A DNA stretch of 54,846 nt from Mesonia sp. Its GTDB lineage: Bacteria; Bacteroidota; Bacteroidia; Flavobacteriales; Flavobacteriaceae. The stretch covers positions 1 through 54,846 of the forward strand of contig DTTX01000020.1 of assembly GCA_012964435.1 (NCBI GenBank), read 5' to 3'. The position numbers and the translations under genes were made by a program. Below the pieces are notes generated by a model, which had not been told where the DNA came from, did not search any database, and was given only the letters and a program-made list of their open reading frames with translations. Positions 17,013 through 43,635 of the stretch are shown one piece after another. Numbering within the stretch: position 1 is the stretch's first letter; every line of letters starts with the position of its first letter.

Positions 17013-17301
17013 TTTAACTAAGTAGATTTTAATTCTGAAAAACGACCAACGGTATATTTCTATCGATAACAGGTAATAATATAACGACGTAATATAAAAA
17101 CATACAATTAACTACCCAATGAATGAAACACAGAATTATAAAATGAACCTTATCATTTATTTAAAAATTCATTCGTCATGAAATTGTAGAAGTACATATT
17201 TAGAAGTTCATAAATTTTAAATTAAAAGATTCTCAATTTAAGATACCTAAAAATAAAATATCTATAAAAATGAATCATTTTAACATTTTAATTAAATTTT
17301 A

Positions 17302-17334
17302 TTTTGGCTAATCGACGATAGTTCTATACTTTTA
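17302..17334 (+). promoter_or_regulatory. Candidate promoter of the ilv operon
   Basis: TTTTG (17302-17306) is followed after 20 bases by TACTTTTA (17327-17334). This fits the Bacteroidota sigma pattern of TTTG, about 19-21 bases, TAnnTTTG except for the last base. Transcription would begin near 17341, very close to the first leader peptide start at 17345, so either the leader is almost leaderless or a different promoter further upstream is used. Confidence 0.5.
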
Positions 17335-17344
17335 TCAAACAATT

Positions 17345-17407
17345 ATGAAGAAATTAAATAAAAATAGATCCATCAGCTGCTTAGTCATTTCTATTATTAG
17401 AAATTAA
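17345..17407 (+). CDS. ilv leader peptide 1 (attenuation peptide)
   Basis: A 20-codon open frame ending in TAA. Its second half reads SISCLVISIIRN, and the whole peptide contains Leu4, Ile10, Leu13, Val14, Ile15, Ile17 and Ile18. All three amino acids made by the downstream operon are represented, with Ile most frequent. It precedes a terminator with a competing antiterminator, so a ribosome waiting for charged Ile, Leu or Val tRNA would relieve termination. Too short for a protein function; judged by arrangement and codon content. Confidence 0.85.
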   Translation: MKKLNKNRSISCLVISIIRN

Positions 17408-17458
17408 CAGATGGATGGTACCCAAAATTGAAGCCATCCTTTTTCGGATGGTTTTTTT
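17368..17458 (+). terminator. Attenuator 1 with mutually exclusive hairpins
   Basis: Four segments are visible. Segment 1, ATCCATC (17368-17374, inside the leader codons), pairs with segment 2, GATGGAT (17410-17416). GGATGG within segment 2 (17413-17418) can instead pair with CCATCC (17434-17439, segment 3). Segment 3 also pairs with GGATGG (17446-17451, segment 4) to form the terminator, followed by seven T. Segments 2 and 4 contain the identical hexamer, which is the mark of a classical attenuator. Confidence 0.85.
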
Positions 17459-17468
17459 ATTTAACGAG

Positions 17469-17537
17469 ATGAAAACAAACAATAACATCGTGATTAGCAT
17501 TATTCTTTTAGTCATTATTATTCCGATAATGAGCTGA
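17469..17537 (+). CDS. ilv leader peptide 2 (attenuation peptide)
   Basis: A 22-codon frame starting 11 bases after terminator 1 and ending in TGA. From residue 7 it reads IVISIILLVIIIPIM, so 12 of 22 residues are Ile, Leu or Val. It is followed by its own terminator and antiterminator. The core resembles leader 1 (ISCLVISII against ISIILLVIII, with shared DNA around TTAGTCATT), so the two leaders may derive from a duplication. A hydrophobic mini-protein is an alternative, but position and codon content favour a second attenuation peptide. Confidence 0.85.
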   Translation: MKTNNNIVISIILLVIIIPIMS

Positions 17538-17600
17538 GAAGGTATTGCTATTATTGAAAGTATAAATAAAAGCTCTTCTCACACCGAGAAGAGCTTTTTT
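17535..17600 (+). terminator. Attenuator 2: strong terminator with overlapping antiterminator
   Basis: AGCTCTTCTC (17571-17580) pairs perfectly with GAGAAGAGCT (17586-17595) around ACACC, followed by T residues. The competing segment TGAGAAG (17535-17541), beginning in the stop codon of leader 2, can pair with CTTCTCA (17575-17581). A ribosome at the stop codon would cover that segment and favour termination; one held upstream in the Ile/Leu/Val codons would leave it free. The terminator ends about 17 bases before ilvD. Confidence 0.85.
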
Positions 17601-17616
17601 GTTAAAGAACAAAACC

Positions 17617-19308
17617 ATGAAACTCAACAAATTTAGTCAGCGCGTAACCCAAGATCCCTCCCAGCCTGCTTCACAAGCCATGCTGCACGCTTTAGGATTA
17701 ACCGATAAAGATTTAGAAAAACCCTTCATCGGCATTGGCAGTACAGGCTTTGAAGGCAACCCGTGCAATATGCACCTCAACGACCTCGCGCAACATGTAA
17801 AAACCGGGATCAACAGTAGTGATGGTGTGGGTCTCGTATTCAATACCATTGGCGTAAGTGACGGGATATCGATGGGAACTCCGGGAATGCGCTTTTCACT
17901 TCCTTCCCGCGATATTATCGCCGATTCGATGGAAACCGTGGTCCAAGGCATGAGTTACGATGCGCTCGTCACCGTAGTAGGTTGCGACAAGAATATGCCG
18001 GGTGCATTAATGGCGATGTTTCGGTTAGACAGACCTTCGGTGATGGTATACGGTGGTACGATTGCTTCCGGAAAATTAGGCGATAAAAAGCTAGACATTG
18101 TTTCTGCCTTTGAAGCATGGGGAGAAAAATCTGCCGGAAAAATGAAGGAGTGCGAATTTAAAAAAGTAATTCACCATGCTTGTCCCGGTCCTGGCGCTTG
18201 TGGCGGAATGTACACTGCCAACACCATGGCTTCTGCGATTGAAGCTTTAGGCTTTTCATTGCCCTACAACGCTTCTAATCCTGCGGTAGGAAATGCAAAA
18301 GTAGCCGAATGTACCCAAGCCGGAGAAGCCGTGATGGAGTTACTGAAAAAAGATTTGAAACCTTCCGATATCGTTTCAAAAAAATCATTTGAAAACGCGA
18401 TTACCGTAGTTATTGCCTTAGGCGGTTCGACCAATGCGGTGCTCCACTTTTTAGCGATCGCCGATGCCGCAGGCGTCGATTTTAAGATAGACGATTTTCA
18501 GCGCATTAGCGATCAAGTTCCCTATTTAGCCGATTTAAAACCGAGCGGTAAATACCTGATGGAAGACCTGCATCAAATTGGCGGAACACCCGCCGTGATG
18601 AAATATTTATTAGAAAAAGGCTATCTACATGGCGATTGCCTAACGGTCACCGGAAAAACAGTAGCCGAAAACTTAGCAGAGGTTCCTTCCCTTTCTTCAG
18701 AACAAGAGATTCTTCATTCCGTAGAACAGCCTTTAAAACCTACTGGTCATTTACGAATTCTAAAAGGAAACTTAGCTCCGGAAGGTGCCGTAGCAAAAAT
18801 CACCGGAAAAGAAGGTTTACTCTTTTCAGGAACCGCTAAAATCTATAATGGCGAATACGAAGCCAACGATGGGATTGCTAACGGAGAAGTAAAAGAAGGC
18901 GATGTGGTGGTGATCCGTTATGAAGGTCCTAAAGGCGGACCCGGAATGCCGGAAATGCTCAAACCTACTTCAGCCATTATGGGAAGAGGTTTAGGGAAGA
19001 AAGTGGCCTTAATTACCGATGGAAGATTTTCCGGAGGTACGCACGGTTTTGTGGTGGGGCACATTACTCCCGAAGCACAAGTTGGCGGCACAATTGGTTT
19101 GCTGAAAGATGGCGATCAAATTACCATCGATGCTGAAAAAAATACGATCGACGTTCACCTATCTGAAGAAGAATTACAAGAACGCCAACAAGAATGGAAA
19201 GCGCCGCCACTAAAAGTATCCCGTGGAGCGCTATTTAAATATGCACAATCTGTAACCTCTGCATCTTTAGGATGCGTAACCGATAAAGCTCATGGAAGTA
19301 CCAACTAA
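17617..19308 (+). CDS. ilvD: Dihydroxy-acid dehydratase
   Basis: A 563-aa enzyme that dehydrates 2,3-dihydroxy-isovalerate and 2,3-dihydroxy-3-methylvalerate to the 2-keto acids, the third shared step of Val/Ile synthesis. Family signatures are [11 protein letters not shown] (Cys123) and [18 protein letters not shown] (Cys189 and the next Cys), which bind an iron-sulfur cluster, and [19 protein letters not shown] near the C terminus. ATG 17617 is preferred over an in-frame TTG at 17599, which lies in the T tract of the attenuator. It is the first enzyme gene of the operon and overlaps ilvB by 17 bases. Confidence 0.97.
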
Positions 19309-21001
19309 AACAAAAGTCATCACAGGAGCAGAAGCCGTGGTTAAATGTCTTTTGCTAGAAGAAACGGAATATTTGTTCGGCTATCCTGGCGGAGCCATTA
19401 TGCCGGTGTACGATGCAATGTACGATTATCGCGATCGCTTAGCACATATTTTAACGCGACACGAACAAGGTGCTATTCACGCCGCACAAGGTTACGCACG
19501 CGTCTCGGGTAAGGTTGGTGTTTGCATCGCCACATCGGGCCCGGGAGCCACCAATCTGATTACCGGTTTGGCCGATGCGCAGATCGATTCAACGCCCTTA
19601 GTTTGCATTACCGGGCAAGTAGGCAGCAATCTTTTAGGCACCGATGCTTTTCAGGAAACCGATGTGGTCGGCATTTCGACGCCGGTCACCAAATGGAACA
19701 TCCAAGTGACCCAAGCGAAAGATATTCCGCAGGCCTTAGCCAAAGCTTTTTATGTAGCCAAAACCGGAAGACCCGGTCCGGTATTGATCGATATTACCAA
19801 AGATGCACAGTTTGAAAGTTTTGAATTTGAATATGAACCTTGCCAAAGTGTTCGCAGCTATGTTCCCGATAATCCTGTTGAGGAAGCACAAATCAAAAAA
19901 GCGGCCGCCTTAATCAATCAAGCGAAGAAACCTTATGTGCTTTTTGGCCAAGGAGTGGTGTTGGCAGAAGCGCAGGAAGAATTTAGAAAATTTATTGAAA
20001 AAGGAGACCTTCCTTCGGCGTGGACCATTTTAGGAATTTCTGCACTTTCTTCACATCATCCACTCAATATGGGCATGTTAGGGATGCACGGAAATTACGG
20101 CCCTAATTTACTCACAAACGAATGTGATGTGTTAATTGCCGTCGGCATGCGTTTTGACGATCGGGTGACCGGAGATTTAAGTCGCTATGCCAAACAAGCC
20201 AAAGTGATTCATCTCGAAATTGATCCGGCAGAAATCAATAAAAACGTATATGCCGAGGTGCCGGTTCTTGGCAATTGTAAACATTCGCTGCAAATGCTTA
20301 CCGAGCTTTTAGAAGAAAAAAAGCACGACGATTGGAAGCAAGAATTCTACAACTGCAAGCAAAAAGAGTTTTTAGAAGTCGTTGAAGAAGAACTTTCTCC
20401 TTCGTTAGAAAAAGAAATGACGATGGGTGAAGTAATCAAAAAAATCTCAGATAAAACCCTAGGCAAAGCGGTGATCGTAACCGATGTGGGGCAGCATCAA
20501 ATGGCAGCACAACGGTACTACGAGCACGACCAATGGCGAAGTCATGTGACTTCCGGTGGTTTAGGCACGATGGGCTTTGGCCTTCCGGCAGCGATCGGTG
20601 CCAAATTAGGAGCTCCCGATCGTGAAGTGATTTGTGTAGTGGGCGACGGTGGGTTTCAAATGACGATCCAAGAGTTAGGCACCATTTTTCAATCGCAGAT
20701 CGATGTGAAAATTTTGGTATTGAATAATGAATTTCTAGGCATGGTTCGCCAATGGCAAGAATTGTTTTTTGAGCGTCGCTATTCGTTTACCGAAATGGTG
20801 AACCCCGATTTTCAAACCATCGCCAAAGGTTATCATATCGAAACCGAACGTGTAGAACAACGAGAGCACTTAGAAGAAGCGCTCAACCGATTTTTAAATC
20901 ACAAAGGCAGTTATTTATTAGAAGTGATGGTAGGGAAAGAAAACAATGTATTCCCCATGATTCCTACCGGATGCTGTGTTTCTGAAGTGCGATTAAAATA
21001 A
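19292..21001 (+). CDS. ilvB: Acetolactate synthase, large (catalytic) subunit
   Basis: A 569-aa thiamine diphosphate enzyme that condenses pyruvate with pyruvate or 2-ketobutyrate. The N-terminal domain carries the catalytic glutamate in [17 protein letters not shown] and [15 protein letters not shown]. The central FAD-type domain follows. The C-terminal domain has the ThDP motif GDGGFQMT, ending in [12 protein letters not shown]. Length and layout are those of the biosynthetic AHAS large subunit. Overlap with ilvD and the ilvN start 7 bases later show one operon. Confidence 0.97.
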
Positions 21002-21008
21002 AAAAAAG

Positions 21009-21548
21009 ATGAAAGAAGAATTCACCATATCGGTATTTACCGAAGATAAAATTGGCTTACTAAATCGGGTAAGCATCATCTTCACCCGAAGACATATTAA
21101 TATTGAAAGCATCACCGCTTCAGCTAGTGAAGTCGAAGGCGTTCACCGCTACATCATTGTAGTGGAAGAAGAAGAAAGCTTGGTCGTTAAAGTAATTCAG
21201 CAAATCGAAAAGCAGGTCGATGTGGTGAAAGCTTTTTACCACCGTAACGACGAGATGGTACATCAAGAAATCGCACTTTATAAAGTACCTACTTCAGCTT
21301 TGGCTTCCGGAGAAGATGTAGAAGAGATCATTAGAAGTAGCAATGCTCGCATTCTCACGGTCGAAGCTGAATTTACGATCATCGAAAAGACAGGTCATAA
21401 AACCGATACGCAAGCACTTTACAACAAGTTAGAACCCTACGGCTTGTTAGGTTTTGTACGTTCAGGCCGTGTGGCCATTCCCAAACAGATGAAAGAATTT
21501 AAAGAATACATGGCAGAAGTTGAAAAAGCTTCCACCTTTAAATACTAA
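21009..21548 (+). CDS. ilvN: Acetolactate synthase, small (regulatory) subunit
   Basis: A 179-aa protein with an N-terminal ACT domain (FTISVFTEDKIGLLNRVSIIF, then INIESITASASE), followed by the C-terminal AHAS small-subunit domain ending in GFVRSGRVAI. The subunit activates IlvB and gives feedback inhibition by branched-chain amino acids, most often valine. Length is usual for the family (about 160-180 aa). It follows ilvB by 7 bases, so co-expression in the same ratio is expected. Confidence 0.95.
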   Translation: MKEEFTISVFTEDKIGLLNRVSIIFTRRHINIESITASASEVEGVHRYIIVVEEEESLVVKVIQQIEKQVDVVKAFYHRNDEMVHQEIALYKVPTSALASGEDVEEIIRSSNARILTVEAEFTIIEKTGHKTDTQALYNKLEPYGLLGFVRSGRVAIPKQMKEFKEYMAEVEKASTFKY

Positions 21549-21718: not shown

Positions 21719-22765
21719 ATGGCAAAATTAAATTTTGGCGGCGTAGAAGAAAATGTAGTCACTCGTGAGGAGTTTCCTTTAGCTAAAGCAGTAGAAACTT
21801 TAAAAGAAGAAACCATTGCGGTTCTCGGGTACGGAGTTCAAGGTCCGGGGCAAGCGCTCAACTTAAAAGACAACGGCTTTAACGTCATTGTAGGCCAACG
21901 TAAAAACTCTAAAACCTGGGATAAAGCAGTGGCCGATGGCTGGGTTCCCGGTGAAACGCTTTTTGAAGTAGAAGAAGCTGCCAAACGCGGAACGATTGTT
22001 CAATACTTACTTTCTGATGCCGGACAAATCGCTCAGTGGGAAATCGTAAAAAATCAATTAAATCCCGGCGATGCGCTTTACTTTTCGCACGGCTTCGGAA
22101 TTACCTATAAAGACCAAACCGGCATTGTGCCGCCCAAAGATGTCGATGTGATTTTAGTCGCCCCTAAAGGTTCAGGAACGTCTTTACGCCGACTTTTTGT
22201 AGAAGGAAAAGGATTAAATTCTAGTTATGCTATTTTTCAAGATGCCACGGGTAAAGCCTATGACCGTGTCGTTGCCTTAGGTATTGGCGTAGGTTCGGGA
22301 TATTTATTTGAAACCGATTTTCAGAAAGAAGTGTATTCAGATTTAACCGGAGAACGCGGAATCTTAATGGGGGCTTTGGCCGGCGTTTTTGAAGCCCAAT
22401 ATGAAGTCTTACGCAAAAATGGACATTCGCCTTCGGAAGCATTTAATGAAACCGTGGAAGAACTTACGCAAAGTTTAATGCCTTTAGTCGCTGAAAACGG
22501 AATGGATTGGATGTATGCCAATTGCTCGACCACCGCGCAACGTGGAGCTTTAGACTGGCGCCATAAATTTAGAGAAGCGACCCTCCCGGTGTTTGACGAT
22601 CTTTACGATAGTGTAAAAACCGGAGAAGAGGCTCGCGTGACGATTAAAGCCAATGAAAAAGAAGATTACCGTGTAAAACTAGAAGAAGAATTAAAAGAGT
22701 TACGCGAATCTGAATTATGGCAAACCGGCGCGCAAGTAAGAAAATTAAGACCGGAAAACAACTAA
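21719..22765 (+). CDS. ilvC: Ketol-acid reductoisomerase (NADP-type, class I)
   Basis: A 348-aa enzyme converting acetolactate and acetohydroxybutyrate to dihydroxy acids. The Rossmann motif reads AVLGYGVQGPGQALNLKDNG, followed by the cofactor loop VGQRKNSKTW with basic residues that suit NADPH. The knotted C-terminal domain has the metal-binding acids in SDLTGERGILMGALAGVFEAQYEVL and the STTAQRGALDW segment. The single C-terminal domain makes it the short class I type. Wording such as VAPKGSGTSLRRLF differs from the proteobacterial VAPK-x-PG pattern. ilvN and ilvC are separated by a 170-base spacer carrying a repeat. Confidence 0.96.
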   Translation: MAKLNFGGVEENVVTREEFPLAKAVETLKEETIAVLGYGVQGPGQALNLKDNGFNVIVGQRKNSKTWDKAVADGWVPGETLFEVEEAAKRGTIVQYLLSDAGQIAQWEIVKNQLNPGDALYFSHGFGITYKDQTGIVPPKDVDVILVAPKGSGTSLRRLFVEGKGLNSSYAIFQDATGKAYDRVVALGIGVGSGYLFETDFQKEVYSDLTGERGILMGALAGVFEAQYEVLRKNGHSPSEAFNETVEELTQSLMPLVAENGMDWMYANCSTTAQRGALDWRHKFREATLPVFDDLYDSVKTGEEARVTIKANEKEDYRVKLEEELKELRESELWQTGAQVRKLRPENN

Positions 22766-23296: not shown

Positions 23297-24559
23297 ATGA
23301 AAACGCAAACTTTACCGCAACTTTCTTTAGCAGAAATCAAGAAAGCGCAAAAGAATTTAGAAGGCATCGCTAAAAACACACCGCTAGAGAAGAACCGAAG
23401 TTATTCTAAAGATTTCGAGGCGCAAATCTTTTTAAAAAGAGAAGACCAGCAACGGGTGCGCTCGTATAAAATTAGAGGCGCATATCATAAAATTGTTTCG
23501 TTAACGGAAGAAGAAAGAGCAAAAGGCGTGGTTTGTGCCAGCGCGGGCAATCACGCGCAAGGCGTGGCGTATTCTTGTAAAAAGTTAAATATCGATGCTA
23601 AAATTTTTATGCCTACGCCTACACCACTTCAAAAAGTACAGCAGGTTCGCATGTTTGGGGAAGATCGCGTGGAAGTGATTTTAGTAGGTGATACCTTTGA
23701 TGATGCCAAGGTAGAAGCCATGCGGTATAGCGAGCTACACCAAAGTACGGTGATCCATCCGTTTGATGATCCTAAAATTATGGAAGGGCAAGGCACAATT
23801 GCCTTAGAGATTTTAGCGGCTGCTGAAGCTCCGATCGATTATGTTTTTGTACCCATTGGCGGCGGCGGCGTGGCTTCGGGCGTAAGCAGTGTATTTAAAG
23901 CACTTTCACCACATACCAAAATTATTGGGGTAGAACCGAAAGGTGCTGCTTCGATGTCGACCTCGATCGATAAGGATGAAAATACAGAGCTACACCTCAT
24001 CGATAAATTTGTAGATGGTGCGGCCGTAAAAAAAGTAGGCGACCTTACTTTTCAAATCTGTAAGCAAAATTTAGAAAAAGTGCTTACCGTAGACGAAGGT
24101 AAAATTTGTGAAACCATCCTGAACCTCTACAACAAAGATGCGATCGTAGTAGAACCTGCCGGAGCCTTAACTTTAGCTGCACTCGAACAATTTTCTGAAG
24201 AAATAAAAGGGAAACATGTCGTTTGTGTGGTTAGCGGCGGCAACAACGATATTACCCGCATGGAAGAAATTAAAGAACGAGCTTTATTATATAACGGACT
24301 CAAACATTACTTTTTGGTTCGGTTTCCGCAACGTGCCGGGGCTTTAAAACAATTTGTGGTAGAAGTGTTAGGCGCAACGGATGATATCACCCATTTTGAA
24401 TACATCAAAAAAAATTCTCGCGAAAAAGGCTATGCGGTCGTGGGCATCGAATTAAAAGCTAAAGAAGATTTTGAACCGCTATTAAGCCGAATGAAAGATT
24501 TACAATTCTTTGGGGATTACATTAATCCTAAGGAAAGTTTGATGAATATTTTGGTCTAA
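23297..24559 (+). CDS. ilvA: Threonine deaminase (biosynthetic, with ACT-like domain)
   Basis: A 420-aa PLP enzyme that turns threonine into 2-ketobutyrate, the entry to isoleucine. The PLP lysine is K58 in RVRSYKIRGAYHKI. The phosphate-binding loop is IGGGGVASG, and CASAGNHAQGVAYSC is the family substrate loop. Residues about 330-420 form one ACT-like regulatory domain (KHYFLVRFPQRAGALKQF). E. coli IlvA has two such units in 514 aa; this single-unit length is common in other phyla. A 531-base repeat-filled gap separates it from ilvC, so it may have its own promoter. Confidence 0.94.
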   Translation: MKTQTLPQLSLAEIKKAQKNLEGIAKNTPLEKNRSYSKDFEAQIFLKREDQQRVRSYKIRGAYHKIVSLTEEERAKGVVCASAGNHAQGVAYSCKKLNIDAKIFMPTPTPLQKVQQVRMFGEDRVEVILVGDTFDDAKVEAMRYSELHQSTVIHPFDDPKIMEGQGTIALEILAAAEAPIDYVFVPIGGGGVASGVSSVFKALSPHTKIIGVEPKGAASMSTSIDKDENTELHLIDKFVDGAAVKKVGDLTFQICKQNLEKVLTVDEGKICETILNLYNKDAIVVEPAGALTLAALEQFSEEIKGKHVVCVVSGGNNDITRMEEIKERALLYNGLKHYFLVRFPQRAGALKQFVVEVLGATDDITHFEYIKKNSREKGYAVVGIELKAKEDFEPLLSRMKDLQFFGDYINPKESLMNILV

Positions 24560-31876: not shown

Positions 31877-31975
31877 GGGCGCAACCCTAACGGGTCGGGC
31901 TATTCGCTATATCTTTTTCATCTTCCTGCGTAGGCAGGAATCTAAAAAAGGATGCCGCTTCTATCCCTTGCGCAA
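31877..31975 (-). repeat. Framed repeat, copy A (reverse orientation)
   Basis: 99 bases between leuA and leuC. In the minus orientation it begins TTGCGCAAGGGATAGAAG and ends CCCGACCCGTTAGGG plus TTGCGCCC. Its core contains the perfect-arm palindrome TTCCTGCGTAGGCAGGAA (31923-31940). It matches copy C at 43537 almost completely. Confidence 0.85.
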
Positions 31976-31992
31976 TTAGAAGATCAACAAAA

Positions 31993-33375: not shown

Positions 33376-33971
33376 TGGAAAAATTTATCACACTTACCGA
33401 TACCGCTGTTCCTTTAGAGATTGAAAATATTGATACCGACCAGATCATACCGGCGCGATTTTTAAAAGCGACCGATAAAGCCGGGTTTGGAGAGAATTTA
33501 TTTAAAGATTGGCGTTTTGATCATGAAGGAAATGAAAAAGAAGATTTTCCGCTCAATCAAGAAAGATATCACGGACAATTATTAGTGGCCGGAGACAATT
33601 TTGGTTGTGGTTCTAGTCGAGAACACGCTGCCTGGGCAATTAAAGCTTACGGTTTTAAAGTTGTCGTCTCCAGTTATTTTGCTGACATTTTTAAAGGAAA
33701 CTCATTGAATAATGGTTTGCTTCCTGTGCAGGTGAGTCCGGAGTTTTTATCGGAACTTTTTAAAGCGATCGAAGAAAACCCACAAACACAAATTAAAGTA
33801 GATTTAGAAAATCAATCGATAAAACTCATCGATAAAAATTTAGAAGAAAAATTTGACATCGATGCTTATAAAAAAATGTGCTTACTTAAAGGTTTTGATG
33901 ATATTGACTTTTTAGTAAGCAAACTTGATCAAATTAAAGCTTTTGAAAAAGCAACAAACCGCATAAACTAA
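33375..33971 (+). CDS. leuD: 3-isopropylmalate dehydratase, small subunit
   Basis: A 198-aa swivel-domain subunit paired with LeuC. Signatures: [36 protein letters not shown] and [16 protein letters not shown]. Length is the normal 190-200 aa. The start overlaps the leuC stop by one base. The next gene, leuB, is separated by a repeat rather than by a terminator, so all four leu genes may still share one transcript. Confidence 0.97.
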
Positions 33972-33972
33972 C

Positions 33973-34088
33973 TTGCGCAAGGGATAGAAGTGGCATCCTT
34001 TTTTGCTCCATGAAACACTTCTCGACTCCGCTCGAAGTGACAAGCAAAAAAGATATAACGTATAGCCCGACCCGCTAGGGTTGCGCCC
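33973..34088 (+). repeat. Framed repeat, copy B with different core
   Basis: 116 bases starting one base after the leuD stop. The frame is TTGCGCAAGGGATAGAAG on the left and CCCGACCCGCTAGGG plus TTGCGCCC on the right, as in copy C. The core is not the TTCCTGC palindrome but CACTTCTCGACTCCGCTCG plus AAGTGACA, the reverse of the GTCATTTCGAGCGGAGTCGA unit. Confidence 0.85.
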
Positions 34089-43528: not shown

Positions 43529-43536
43529 GATATTTT

Positions 43537-43635
43537 TTGCGCAAGGGATGGAAGTGGCATCCTTTTTTAGATTCCTGCCTGCGCAGGAAGTTGAAAAAGA
43601 TATAACGTACAGCCCGACCCGCTAGGGTTGCGCCC
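43537..43635 (+). repeat. Framed repeat, copy C
   Basis: 99 bases between the terminator and the tpiA stop. Left frame TTGCGCAAGGGATGGAAG, right frame CCCGACCCGCTAGGG plus TTGCGCCC. The core is the palindrome TTCCTGCCTGCGCAGGAA (43572-43589), as in copy A. Confidence 0.85.

What the first reader, a model, noticed from the sequence alone, without database searches (positions are those of the whole stretch)
17345..17600. Two consecutive Ile/Leu/Val leader-peptide attenuators before ilvD
Between the promoter region and ilvD lie two complete attenuators in series. Each has a short leader peptide rich in Ile, Leu and Val (7 of 20 and 12 of 22 residues), an antiterminator and a T-rich terminator whose arms exclude each other. 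In attenuator 1 segments 2 and 4 share the hexamer GGATGG. In attenuator 2 the antiterminator arm starts in the stop codon. Classical ilv operons have one such unit. Two in a row would multiply the reduction and work as a two-step check on charged tRNA; similarity of the peptide cores suggests a duplication.
Basis: partly seen in the sequence, partly recalled or inferred. Interest (0 to 1): 0.82.

Follow-up and report, generated by a model that had tools for sequence, protein, structure and literature searches.

The report
Twin in-series ilv leader-peptide attenuators
Before its genes for making isoleucine, leucine and valine, this flavobacterium carries two predicted "is there enough of these amino acids?" switches one behind the other, an arrangement that recurs in several related bacteria and would let one control signal be checked twice.

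Summary
Between one promoter-like site and ilvD lie two complete predicted leader-peptide attenuators: leader 1 at 17345-17407 with terminator 17430-17455, and leader 2 at 17469-17537 with terminator 17568-17598. In stall modelling leader 2 forms its antiterminator almost only when the ribosome stops in its Ile/Val/Leu run; leader 1 loses its antiterminator just after that run but has no lower limit. Attenuator 1 is under constraint: its core codons are 96% identical in the most distant tandem relative of the genus, where DNA upstream is about 40% identical.

In the genus 4 of 6 ilvD loci carry both units and 2 of 6 only the second. A survey of 284 ilvD upstream regions gave 18 tandem, 84 single, 182 none; 13 of the 18 are other Flavobacteriaceae, one an Ignavibacteriae MAG (second unit doubtful). 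Shuffled regions gave no tandem in 852. Promoter-like sites precede first units, rarely second ones.

So the arrangement is real and recurrent, not unique to this genome: a new variant of classical attenuation, two same-signal attenuators in series. Function is predicted, not measured. Whether the pair is one old duplication or a repeated one is unresolved.

The parts
17303..17332 (+). promoter-like site TTTG (17303-17306), 18 nt, TATACTTT (17325-17332)
   Evidence: Block recognisable in all 6 genus loci, 64-88% identical to the window; the -7 consensus TAnnTTTG is from a passage of PMC9723704, the TTTG part is recalled. Register uncertain: the scan prefers TACTTTTA with a 20-nt spacer. Start of transcription inferred near 17338-17340.
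17345..17407 (+). leader peptide 1, 20 aa, control codons Leu-Val-Ile-Ser-Ile-Ile
   Evidence: codons 17381-17407 are 96-100% identical in the 4 tandem genus loci
17368..17417 (+). attenuator 1 protector hairpin 1:2, -11.7 kcal/mol
   Evidence: part of the MFE of the leader
17413..17439 (+). attenuator 1 antiterminator 2:3 (GGATGGT with GCCATCC), -9.6 kcal/mol
17430..17461 (+). terminator 1: stem 17430-17455, -13.0 kcal/mol, with U-tract
17469..17537 (+). leader peptide 2, 22 aa, control codons I7-I18
   Evidence: present in 6 of 6 genus loci
17491..17554 (+). attenuator 2 protector hairpin 1:2 running through the control codons, -18.8 kcal/mol
17535..17581 (+). attenuator 2 antiterminator 2:3 (TGAGAAGG with CTCTTCTCA, plus an inner helix), -12.5 kcal/mol; first arm starts in the stop codon
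17568..17604 (+). terminator 2: stem 17568-17598, -17.9 kcal/mol, with U-tract; 3 stem pairs with changes on both sides among 6 genus sequences
17617..19308 (+). ilvD, first gene of the presumed operon; then ilvB 19292-21001, ilvN 21009-21548, ilvC 21719-22765, ilvA 23297-24559
   Evidence: ORFs; TIGR00110, TIGR00118, TIGR00119, TIGR00465, NF006390 and TIGR02079, each over its cut-off

Best explanation
A single transcript starts just before 17345 and must pass two transcription attenuators of the classical ribosome-stalling kind, both reading charged Ile, Leu and Val tRNA, before reaching ilvD-ilvB-ilvN-ilvC-ilvA. If the ribosome finishes leader 1, segment 2 is masked, terminator 1 forms and RNA polymerase stops near 17460. 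If it stalls in LVISII, segment 2 pairs with segment 3 and transcription goes on. The same choice is then made by a second ribosome on leader 2. Expression needs a stall at both (AND), so full-supply leakage should be roughly the product of the two read-through fractions and the response to starvation steeper than with one unit. Shown by sequence: parts, order, mutually exclusive pairings, conservation, recurrence. Inferred: translation of the leaders, termination, response to starvation, product rule.
For: Anatomy and folding. Stall model, leader 2: antiterminator P 0.92-0.97 with the ribosome's A site at I7-I18, 0.01-0.05 at codons 1-4, 0.00 from codon 20 on, at footprints +14 and +15. Leader 1: P 0.96-0.99 up to I18 at footprints +12 to +16 and 0.00 at the stop at +14 to +18. 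Of 120 units from 284 loci, 112 have an I/L/V codon whose stall gives the antiterminator and also lose it at the stop codon; of the units of tandem loci 34 of 36. Segment 2 pairs with its own terminator arm better than with other units' arms: mean -10.2 against -7.1 kcal/mol, p 2e-17, 122 units; better than shuffled in 113 of 122. Constraint on attenuator 1, L092 against L095: upstream 39-42%, leader-1 core 96%, post-stop part 86%, ilvD start 84%. One promoter: score 8 or more of 10 at 13 of 14 first units, 71 of 84 single units, 1 of 18 second units, 24 of 116 shuffled places. The same genome has single classical-looking attenuators before hisG and trpE.
Against: No expression data. Leader 1 has no lower limit in the model: the antiterminator is favoured at every codon up to I18, and in the partial transcript without a ribosome (P 0.96; protector 0.04), so untranslated leader 1 would not be shut off as leader 2 would. 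At footprint +12 leader 1 keeps P 0.37 at the stop. Leader 2 is also permissive at Asn6 and in part at Pro19 (0.54-0.68). The thermodynamic end state of the full RNA is the terminator for every stall (P 0.92-0.97), so antitermination rests on kinetics. Attenuator 1 has fewer control codons and is absent in 2 of 6 genus loci. The antiterminator helix of attenuator 2 has no pair with changes on both sides in the genus. Only 36 of 122 units have their own arm among the best 5% of arms. The second unit of L038 fails.
Confidence: 0.8

Rival explanations
1. Only attenuator 2 matters. Attenuator 1 is a relic or a weak leaky terminator that adds little.
For: 2 of 6 genus loci do without it; leader 1 has only 7 of 20 I/L/V codons; its protector hairpin does not dominate the partial transcript and its stall window has no lower limit.
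Against: Core codons and the part from stop to terminator 1 stay 86-100% identical in the 4 tandem loci while DNA upstream of the promoter falls to 39-47% in L094 and L095; tandem pairs recur in other genera.
Confidence: 0.13
2. The two units answer different signals, as in Salmonella mgtCBR: for example one weighted to Leu/Val and the other to Ile, or one to a different cue through the Arg/Cys/Ser codons of leader 1.
For: Leaders differ in codon make-up: L-V-I-S-I-I against a long Ile-rich run; first and second units are distinct in the best tree.
Against: The stall window of both ends at or within two codons of the end of an I/L/V run, and both units in the listed tandem loci are rich in Ile.
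Confidence: 0.2
3. The pair arose by a tandem duplication within this genus.
For: Shared core codons; one clade for genus units 1 and 2 is not rejected (p-AU 0.084, 0.18 and 0.21 in three treatments); the closest relative of L094 unit 1 in pairwise alignment is the genus's own unit in L097.
Against: In the best tree the 16 first and 16 second units of 16 tandem loci, this genus included, lie on opposite sides of one branch (97/92 with MAFFT auto, 83/78 with L-INS-i); for L092 unit 1 the five closest units are first-position units of other genera (same-position genus units left out). With terminators removed the split needs 2 changes and is not decisive (p-AU 0.18).
Confidence: 0.3
4. Not leader-peptide attenuation at all: two ordinary terminators, or a riboswitch or T-box, with chance I/L/V-rich ORFs in AT-rich DNA.
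For: AT-rich DNA gives Ile codons easily; no ribosome profiling is available.
Against: No Rfam family reaches its gathering score here; shuffled regions give no tandem in 852; I/L/V are 978 of 1716 stall-permissive codons against 189 of 828 others in 120 units, though part of that difference is positional, since leaders tend to start and end with other residues.
Confidence: 0.03

Closest known systems
Classical leader-peptide attenuators of ilv operons (E. coli ilvGMEDA and ilvBN; recalled)
   Same: I/L/V-rich leader, protector, antiterminator and intrinsic terminator before BCAA genes
   Different: One unit per operon (recalled); here two in series behind one promoter-like site
Salmonella mgtCBR tandem attenuators (PMC3641672; abstract and section 11 read)
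   Same: Two short ORFs with attenuation-like switches in one leader
   Different: There the two sense different signals (ATP, proline), act additively, and the stem-loops do not resemble intrinsic terminators; here both leaders are I/L/V-rich and both end in intrinsic terminators
Tandem T-boxes and tandem riboswitches (passages of PMC7583486)
   Same: Two RNA sensors in series; a T-box plus ppGpp riboswitch is cited there as an AND gate
   Different: They bind tRNA or a ligand directly; here the sensor would be a translating ribosome. That review says the modes of action of tandem T-boxes are unknown
ermB control by two leader peptides (PMC8274638; listing only)
   Same: Two leader peptides before one gene
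   Different: Translational attenuation induced by an antibiotic, by its title and abstract start; not amino-acid sensing
Leader-peptide attenuation in Flavobacterium psychrophilum (PMC9723704; section 19 and passages read)
   Same: Strong clues for leader-peptide attenuation before amino-acid operons in the same bacterial family
   Different: No tandem units and no ilv genes mentioned in what I read; its supplementary tables were not open to me

Membership tests
Classical leader-peptide transcription attenuator (ilv/his/trp type), each unit | short ORF rich in codons of the amino acids made by the operon | tested here: met
   7 of 20 and 12 of 22 I/L/V; ilvD-B-N-C-A follow
Classical leader-peptide transcription attenuator (ilv/his/trp type), each unit | intrinsic terminator with U-tract before the first gene | tested here: met
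   -13.0 and -17.9 kcal/mol with U-tracts
Classical leader-peptide transcription attenuator (ilv/his/trp type), each unit | antiterminator exclusive with terminator | tested here: met
   shared segment 3 in both; own pairing better than swapped on average
Classical leader-peptide transcription attenuator (ilv/his/trp type), each unit | stall at control codons frees the antiterminator, completion masks it | tested here: met
   by folding model only
Classical leader-peptide transcription attenuator (ilv/his/trp type), each unit | protector hairpin 1:2 that keeps termination on without translation | tested here: inconclusive
   strong in attenuator 2 (-18.8; antiterminator 0.00 without ribosome), weak in attenuator 1, where the partial transcript favours 2:3 (P 0.96)
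Classical leader-peptide transcription attenuator (ilv/his/trp type), each unit | read-through rises when the amino acid is limiting | not testable with these tools
   needs an experiment
Rfam Thr_leader / Phe_leader | score at or above the family's gathering cut-off | tested here: not met
   34.2 and 28.9 bits against 55
T-box or riboswitch | match to a known family at gathering score | tested here: not met
   none in 17250-17640
mgtCBR-type tandem attenuators | two attenuators in one leader with different signals | tested here: not met
   two in one leader, but both leaders are I/L/V-rich with stall windows that cover the I/L/V run; signals not measured

The most novel reading that the evidence does not exclude
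Two paralogous I/L/V leader-peptide attenuators, an A unit first and a B unit second, have been kept in fixed order before ilvD since an early flavobacterial ancestor, with either one lost in some lineages. They act as a two-ribosome AND gate that sharpens the response of one operon to one signal, a mode that none of the papers listed or read here reports.
Probability: 0.35. Interest if true: 0.65.

Novelty: new variant of a known kind. Interest (0 to 1): 0.5.

Why it matters
Attenuation is a textbook mechanism with one switch per operon. A natural series of two same-signal switches, with close relatives that have only one, gives a ready comparison for asking what a second like checkpoint buys: lower leakage, steeper response, or less noise. 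It also suggests that leader-peptide control of ilvD is common in Bacteroidota: 102 of 284 upstream regions examined here hold at least one unit.

Tried and rejected
Considered and dropped: T-box or riboswitch (no Rfam match at gathering). A promoter between the units (a site scoring 8 or more at 1 of 18 second units, L240). A tandem arrangement unique to this genome (18 of 284 loci). A 40-aa ORF that starts in segment 2 of attenuator 1 and runs in frame into leader 2: open in L092 and L093, not in L094 and L095, so taken as chance.

Mistakes mended on the way: one search missed leader 2 because an upstream in-frame ATG was preferred (fixed). In one search three reverse-strand loci were read the wrong way (redone). 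In one search strand choice was weak for 22 loci; held by eye against the hit strands, three (L284, L307, L313) had been read on the wrong strand; turned round they still hold no unit, so counts stand; all 53 loci checked of L098-L153 were right. In one search the pair set of antiterminator 2 included an inner helix, so it reads 0.48-0.49 at I20-S22; one search counts the 8 outer pairs. In one search the pair coordinates of attenuator 2 were off by one and its zeros for attenuator 2 are void; redone.

Rows dropped and limits: 302 regions became 284 by leaving out regions with identical last 150 nt. The relaxed scan gave 21 loci with two units; three (L140, L249, L276), whose first unit had a weak hairpin or a peptide poor in I/L/V, fell out under the final criteria of 6 or more I/L/V in 10 residues and terminator at or below -9 kcal/mol. 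The four sample groups are by the locus number kept after that, so some family genomes are counted in the phylum sample. Loci L154-L313 were read for 500 nt only; 18 were extended to 838-900 nt, which turned one single (L192) into a tandem, so tandem counts are lower bounds. The promoter score was designed after I had seen the loci, and 4 of 18 first units lay too near the edge to be scored. In one search no antiterminator threshold was used, but pairing energy had a small weight in choosing among ORFs. Unit trees are short (96-128 columns) and the first/second split depends on including the terminators.

Literature; none of the titles and abstract starts listed (20 of 22 shown, 20 of 25) or passages read reports two same-signal leader-peptide attenuators before an amino-acid operon. 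Most listed papers were not opened, and the library lacks most subscription journals. PMC7366714, PMC1262725 and PMC2494555 were only searched for terms.

Full report
WHAT IS THERE. Upstream of ilvD (ATG at 17617) the + strand reads: a promoter-like site TTTG-18-TATACTTT (17303-17332), leader 1 (ATG 17345, stop 17405-17407), terminator 1 (17430-17455 plus U-tract), leader 2 (ATG 17469, 13 nt after the stem; stop 17535-17537), terminator 2 (17568-17598 plus U-tract), 18 nt, ilvD. The following genes are ilvB, ilvN, ilvC and ilvA by NCBIfam models over their cut-offs. The sequence details of the finding were confirmed: 7 of 20 and 12 of 22 I/L/V residues, GGATGG in segments 2 and 4, and a second antiterminator arm that begins with the stop codon.

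CHANCE. The two leaders fold better than shuffles (z -3.6 and -6.1; 0 of 200 as good each). A detector (I/L/V-rich ORF, terminator, antiterminator) run on 139 ilvD upstream regions of up to 900 nt found one unit in 49 and two in 9; dinucleotide shuffles of the same regions gave one unit in 6 of 695 and never two. At relaxed settings shuffles of 284 regions gave one unit in 16 of 852 and never two.

MECHANISM. A ribosome footprint was placed codon by codon and the RNA ahead of it folded up to segment 3. Leader 2 behaves as a sensor whose permissive window nearly matches its I/L/V run: antiterminator probability 0.92-0.97 at I7-I18 (also 0.92 at Asn6), 0.01-0.05 at codons 1-4, 0.54-0.68 at Pro19 and zero from codon 20 on, at footprints +14 and +15; the edges move by one or two codons at +12 to +18. 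Leader 1 is permissive from its first codon up to Ile18, Arg19 or Asn20 depending on footprint, and zero at the stop at +14 to +18 but 0.37 at +12. Its protector hairpin is weak: without a ribosome the partial transcript prefers the antiterminator (P 0.96), so attenuator 1, unlike attenuator 2, should not terminate strongly when untranslated. In the finished RNA the terminator wins at equilibrium for every stall position (P 0.92-0.97), so antitermination must act before segment 4 is made, as is assumed for classical attenuators (recalled). The same model on the 120 units of 284 loci gives the expected behaviour in 112, and in 34 of 36 units of tandem loci; I/L/V make up 978 of 1716 permissive codons and 189 of 828 others. 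Segment 2 pairs better with its own terminator arm than with arms of other units (mean -10.2 against -7.1 kcal/mol over 122 units, p 2e-17) and better than shuffled in 113 of 122, though only 36 of 122 have their own arm among the best 5%. In the genus alignment terminator 2 has 3 stem pairs changed on both sides (shuffles mean 0.9; 15 of 500 as high); the antiterminator helix has none, with 95.7% of cells paired.

ONE TRANSCRIPT. A promoter-like site (TTTG, 17-23 nt, TAnnTTTG; the -7 part is given in PMC9723704, the TTTG part is recalled) scores 8 or more of 10 at 13 of 14 scored first units and 71 of 84 single units, but at 1 of 18 second units; shuffled 24 of 116. In the 18 tandem loci leader 2 starts -1 to 43 nt after terminator 1, median 13.5. 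So unit 2 should be reached mainly by read-through of unit 1.

GENUS. 6 of 16 genomes of the genus have an ilvD match. Four (L092-L095) carry both units, two (L096, L097) only unit 2, directly behind the same promoter block. Between L092 and L095 the DNA upstream of the promoter is 39-42% identical, the promoter block 70%, the leader 1 core 96%, the part from stop to terminator 1 86%, the leader 2 core 95%, the start of ilvD 84%. Attenuator 1 therefore looks held by selection.

FAMILY. 302 ilvD upstream regions were read, 284 after removal of duplicates. Final count: 18 tandem, 84 single, 182 none: genus 4 and 2 of 6; family sample 9 and 31 of 114; named genome contigs 5 and 22 of 80; phylum sample 0 and 29 of 84. 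The nine family-sample tandem loci carry eight genus codes. The named tandem loci are two Aquimarina (L024, L029), Gaetbulibacter sp. S0825 (L036), an uncultured Lutibacter (L047) and an Ignavibacteriae MAG (L038, whose second unit fails the pairing and stall tests). Outside the window genus the usual first unit has a CCTTCC/GGAAGG terminator and the usual second one CCTGTATC/GATACAGG; Aquimarina, L038 and L243 differ in part.

ORIGIN. In trees of 54 chosen units (all 36 of tandem loci and 18 of single loci) the 16 first and 16 second units of the tandem loci other than Aquimarina fall on opposite sides of one branch (97/92; 83/78 with another alignment), this genus included. That suggests two old paralogues in fixed order. 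With terminators removed the split needs 2 changes and one-clade tests do not decide (p-AU 0.18); one clade for both genus units is not rejected either (p-AU 0.084, 0.18, 0.21). Pairwise alignment is mixed: the five closest units of L092 unit 1 are first units of other genera, but the closest of L094 unit 1 is the genus unit of L097. The four Aquimarina units group together without firm support (70/66), which hints at a separate duplication there.

CONTEXT. The same genome has single attenuators before hisG (MRQINLHHHHIHFHAQAR) and trpE (MKILTVHTWWWNNLRKTS); none was found before the leuA-like gene at about 30701. Strong clues for leader-peptide attenuation before amino-acid operons were reported in Flavobacterium psychrophilum (PMC9723704, section 19). 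[quoted passage not shown] section 11). Ten library searches listed no report of a same-signal pair before an amino-acid operon; most listed papers were not opened.

VERDICT. It is not peculiar to this genome. I file it as a new variant of classical attenuation. Dynamics and evolutionary origin remain open.

Noticed in passing
G000:C74 upstream of 86836 (-) (L338) and G000:C6 upstream of 64159 (L339): Textbook-looking single His and Trp leader-peptide attenuators (leaders with HHHHIHFH and HTWWW, each followed by a strong terminator) before hisG and trpE in the same genome.
   Followed up: partly
L016, L018, L024, L100, L103, last ~200 nt before ilvD: In many other loci the last attenuator ends 170-300 nt before ilvD; in some of those printed the gap seems, by eye, to hold a further promoter-like site. 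Its meaning is unknown.
   Followed up: no
window 33966-34076 (+), 31889-31981 (-), 43534-43623 (+): Three copies of the Flavo-1 RNA motif (RF01705) within 12 kb.
   Followed up: no
genus of the window: 10 of 16 genomes of the genus gave no ilvD match at E <= 0.001, so loss of the BCAA pathway may be common there.
   Followed up: no
L334, about 200 nt before an aspartate kinase gene in G000: A short ORF ending ...ISTITTITPFGV (translated by eye) looks like a Thr/Ile leader, but the scan found no clear intrinsic terminator after it.
   Followed up: no
L038 (Ignavibacteriae MAG contig JABFGH010000007.1): A tandem-like ilvD leader outside Bacteroidota, or a misplaced contig; first unit convincing, second doubtful.
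   Followed up: partly
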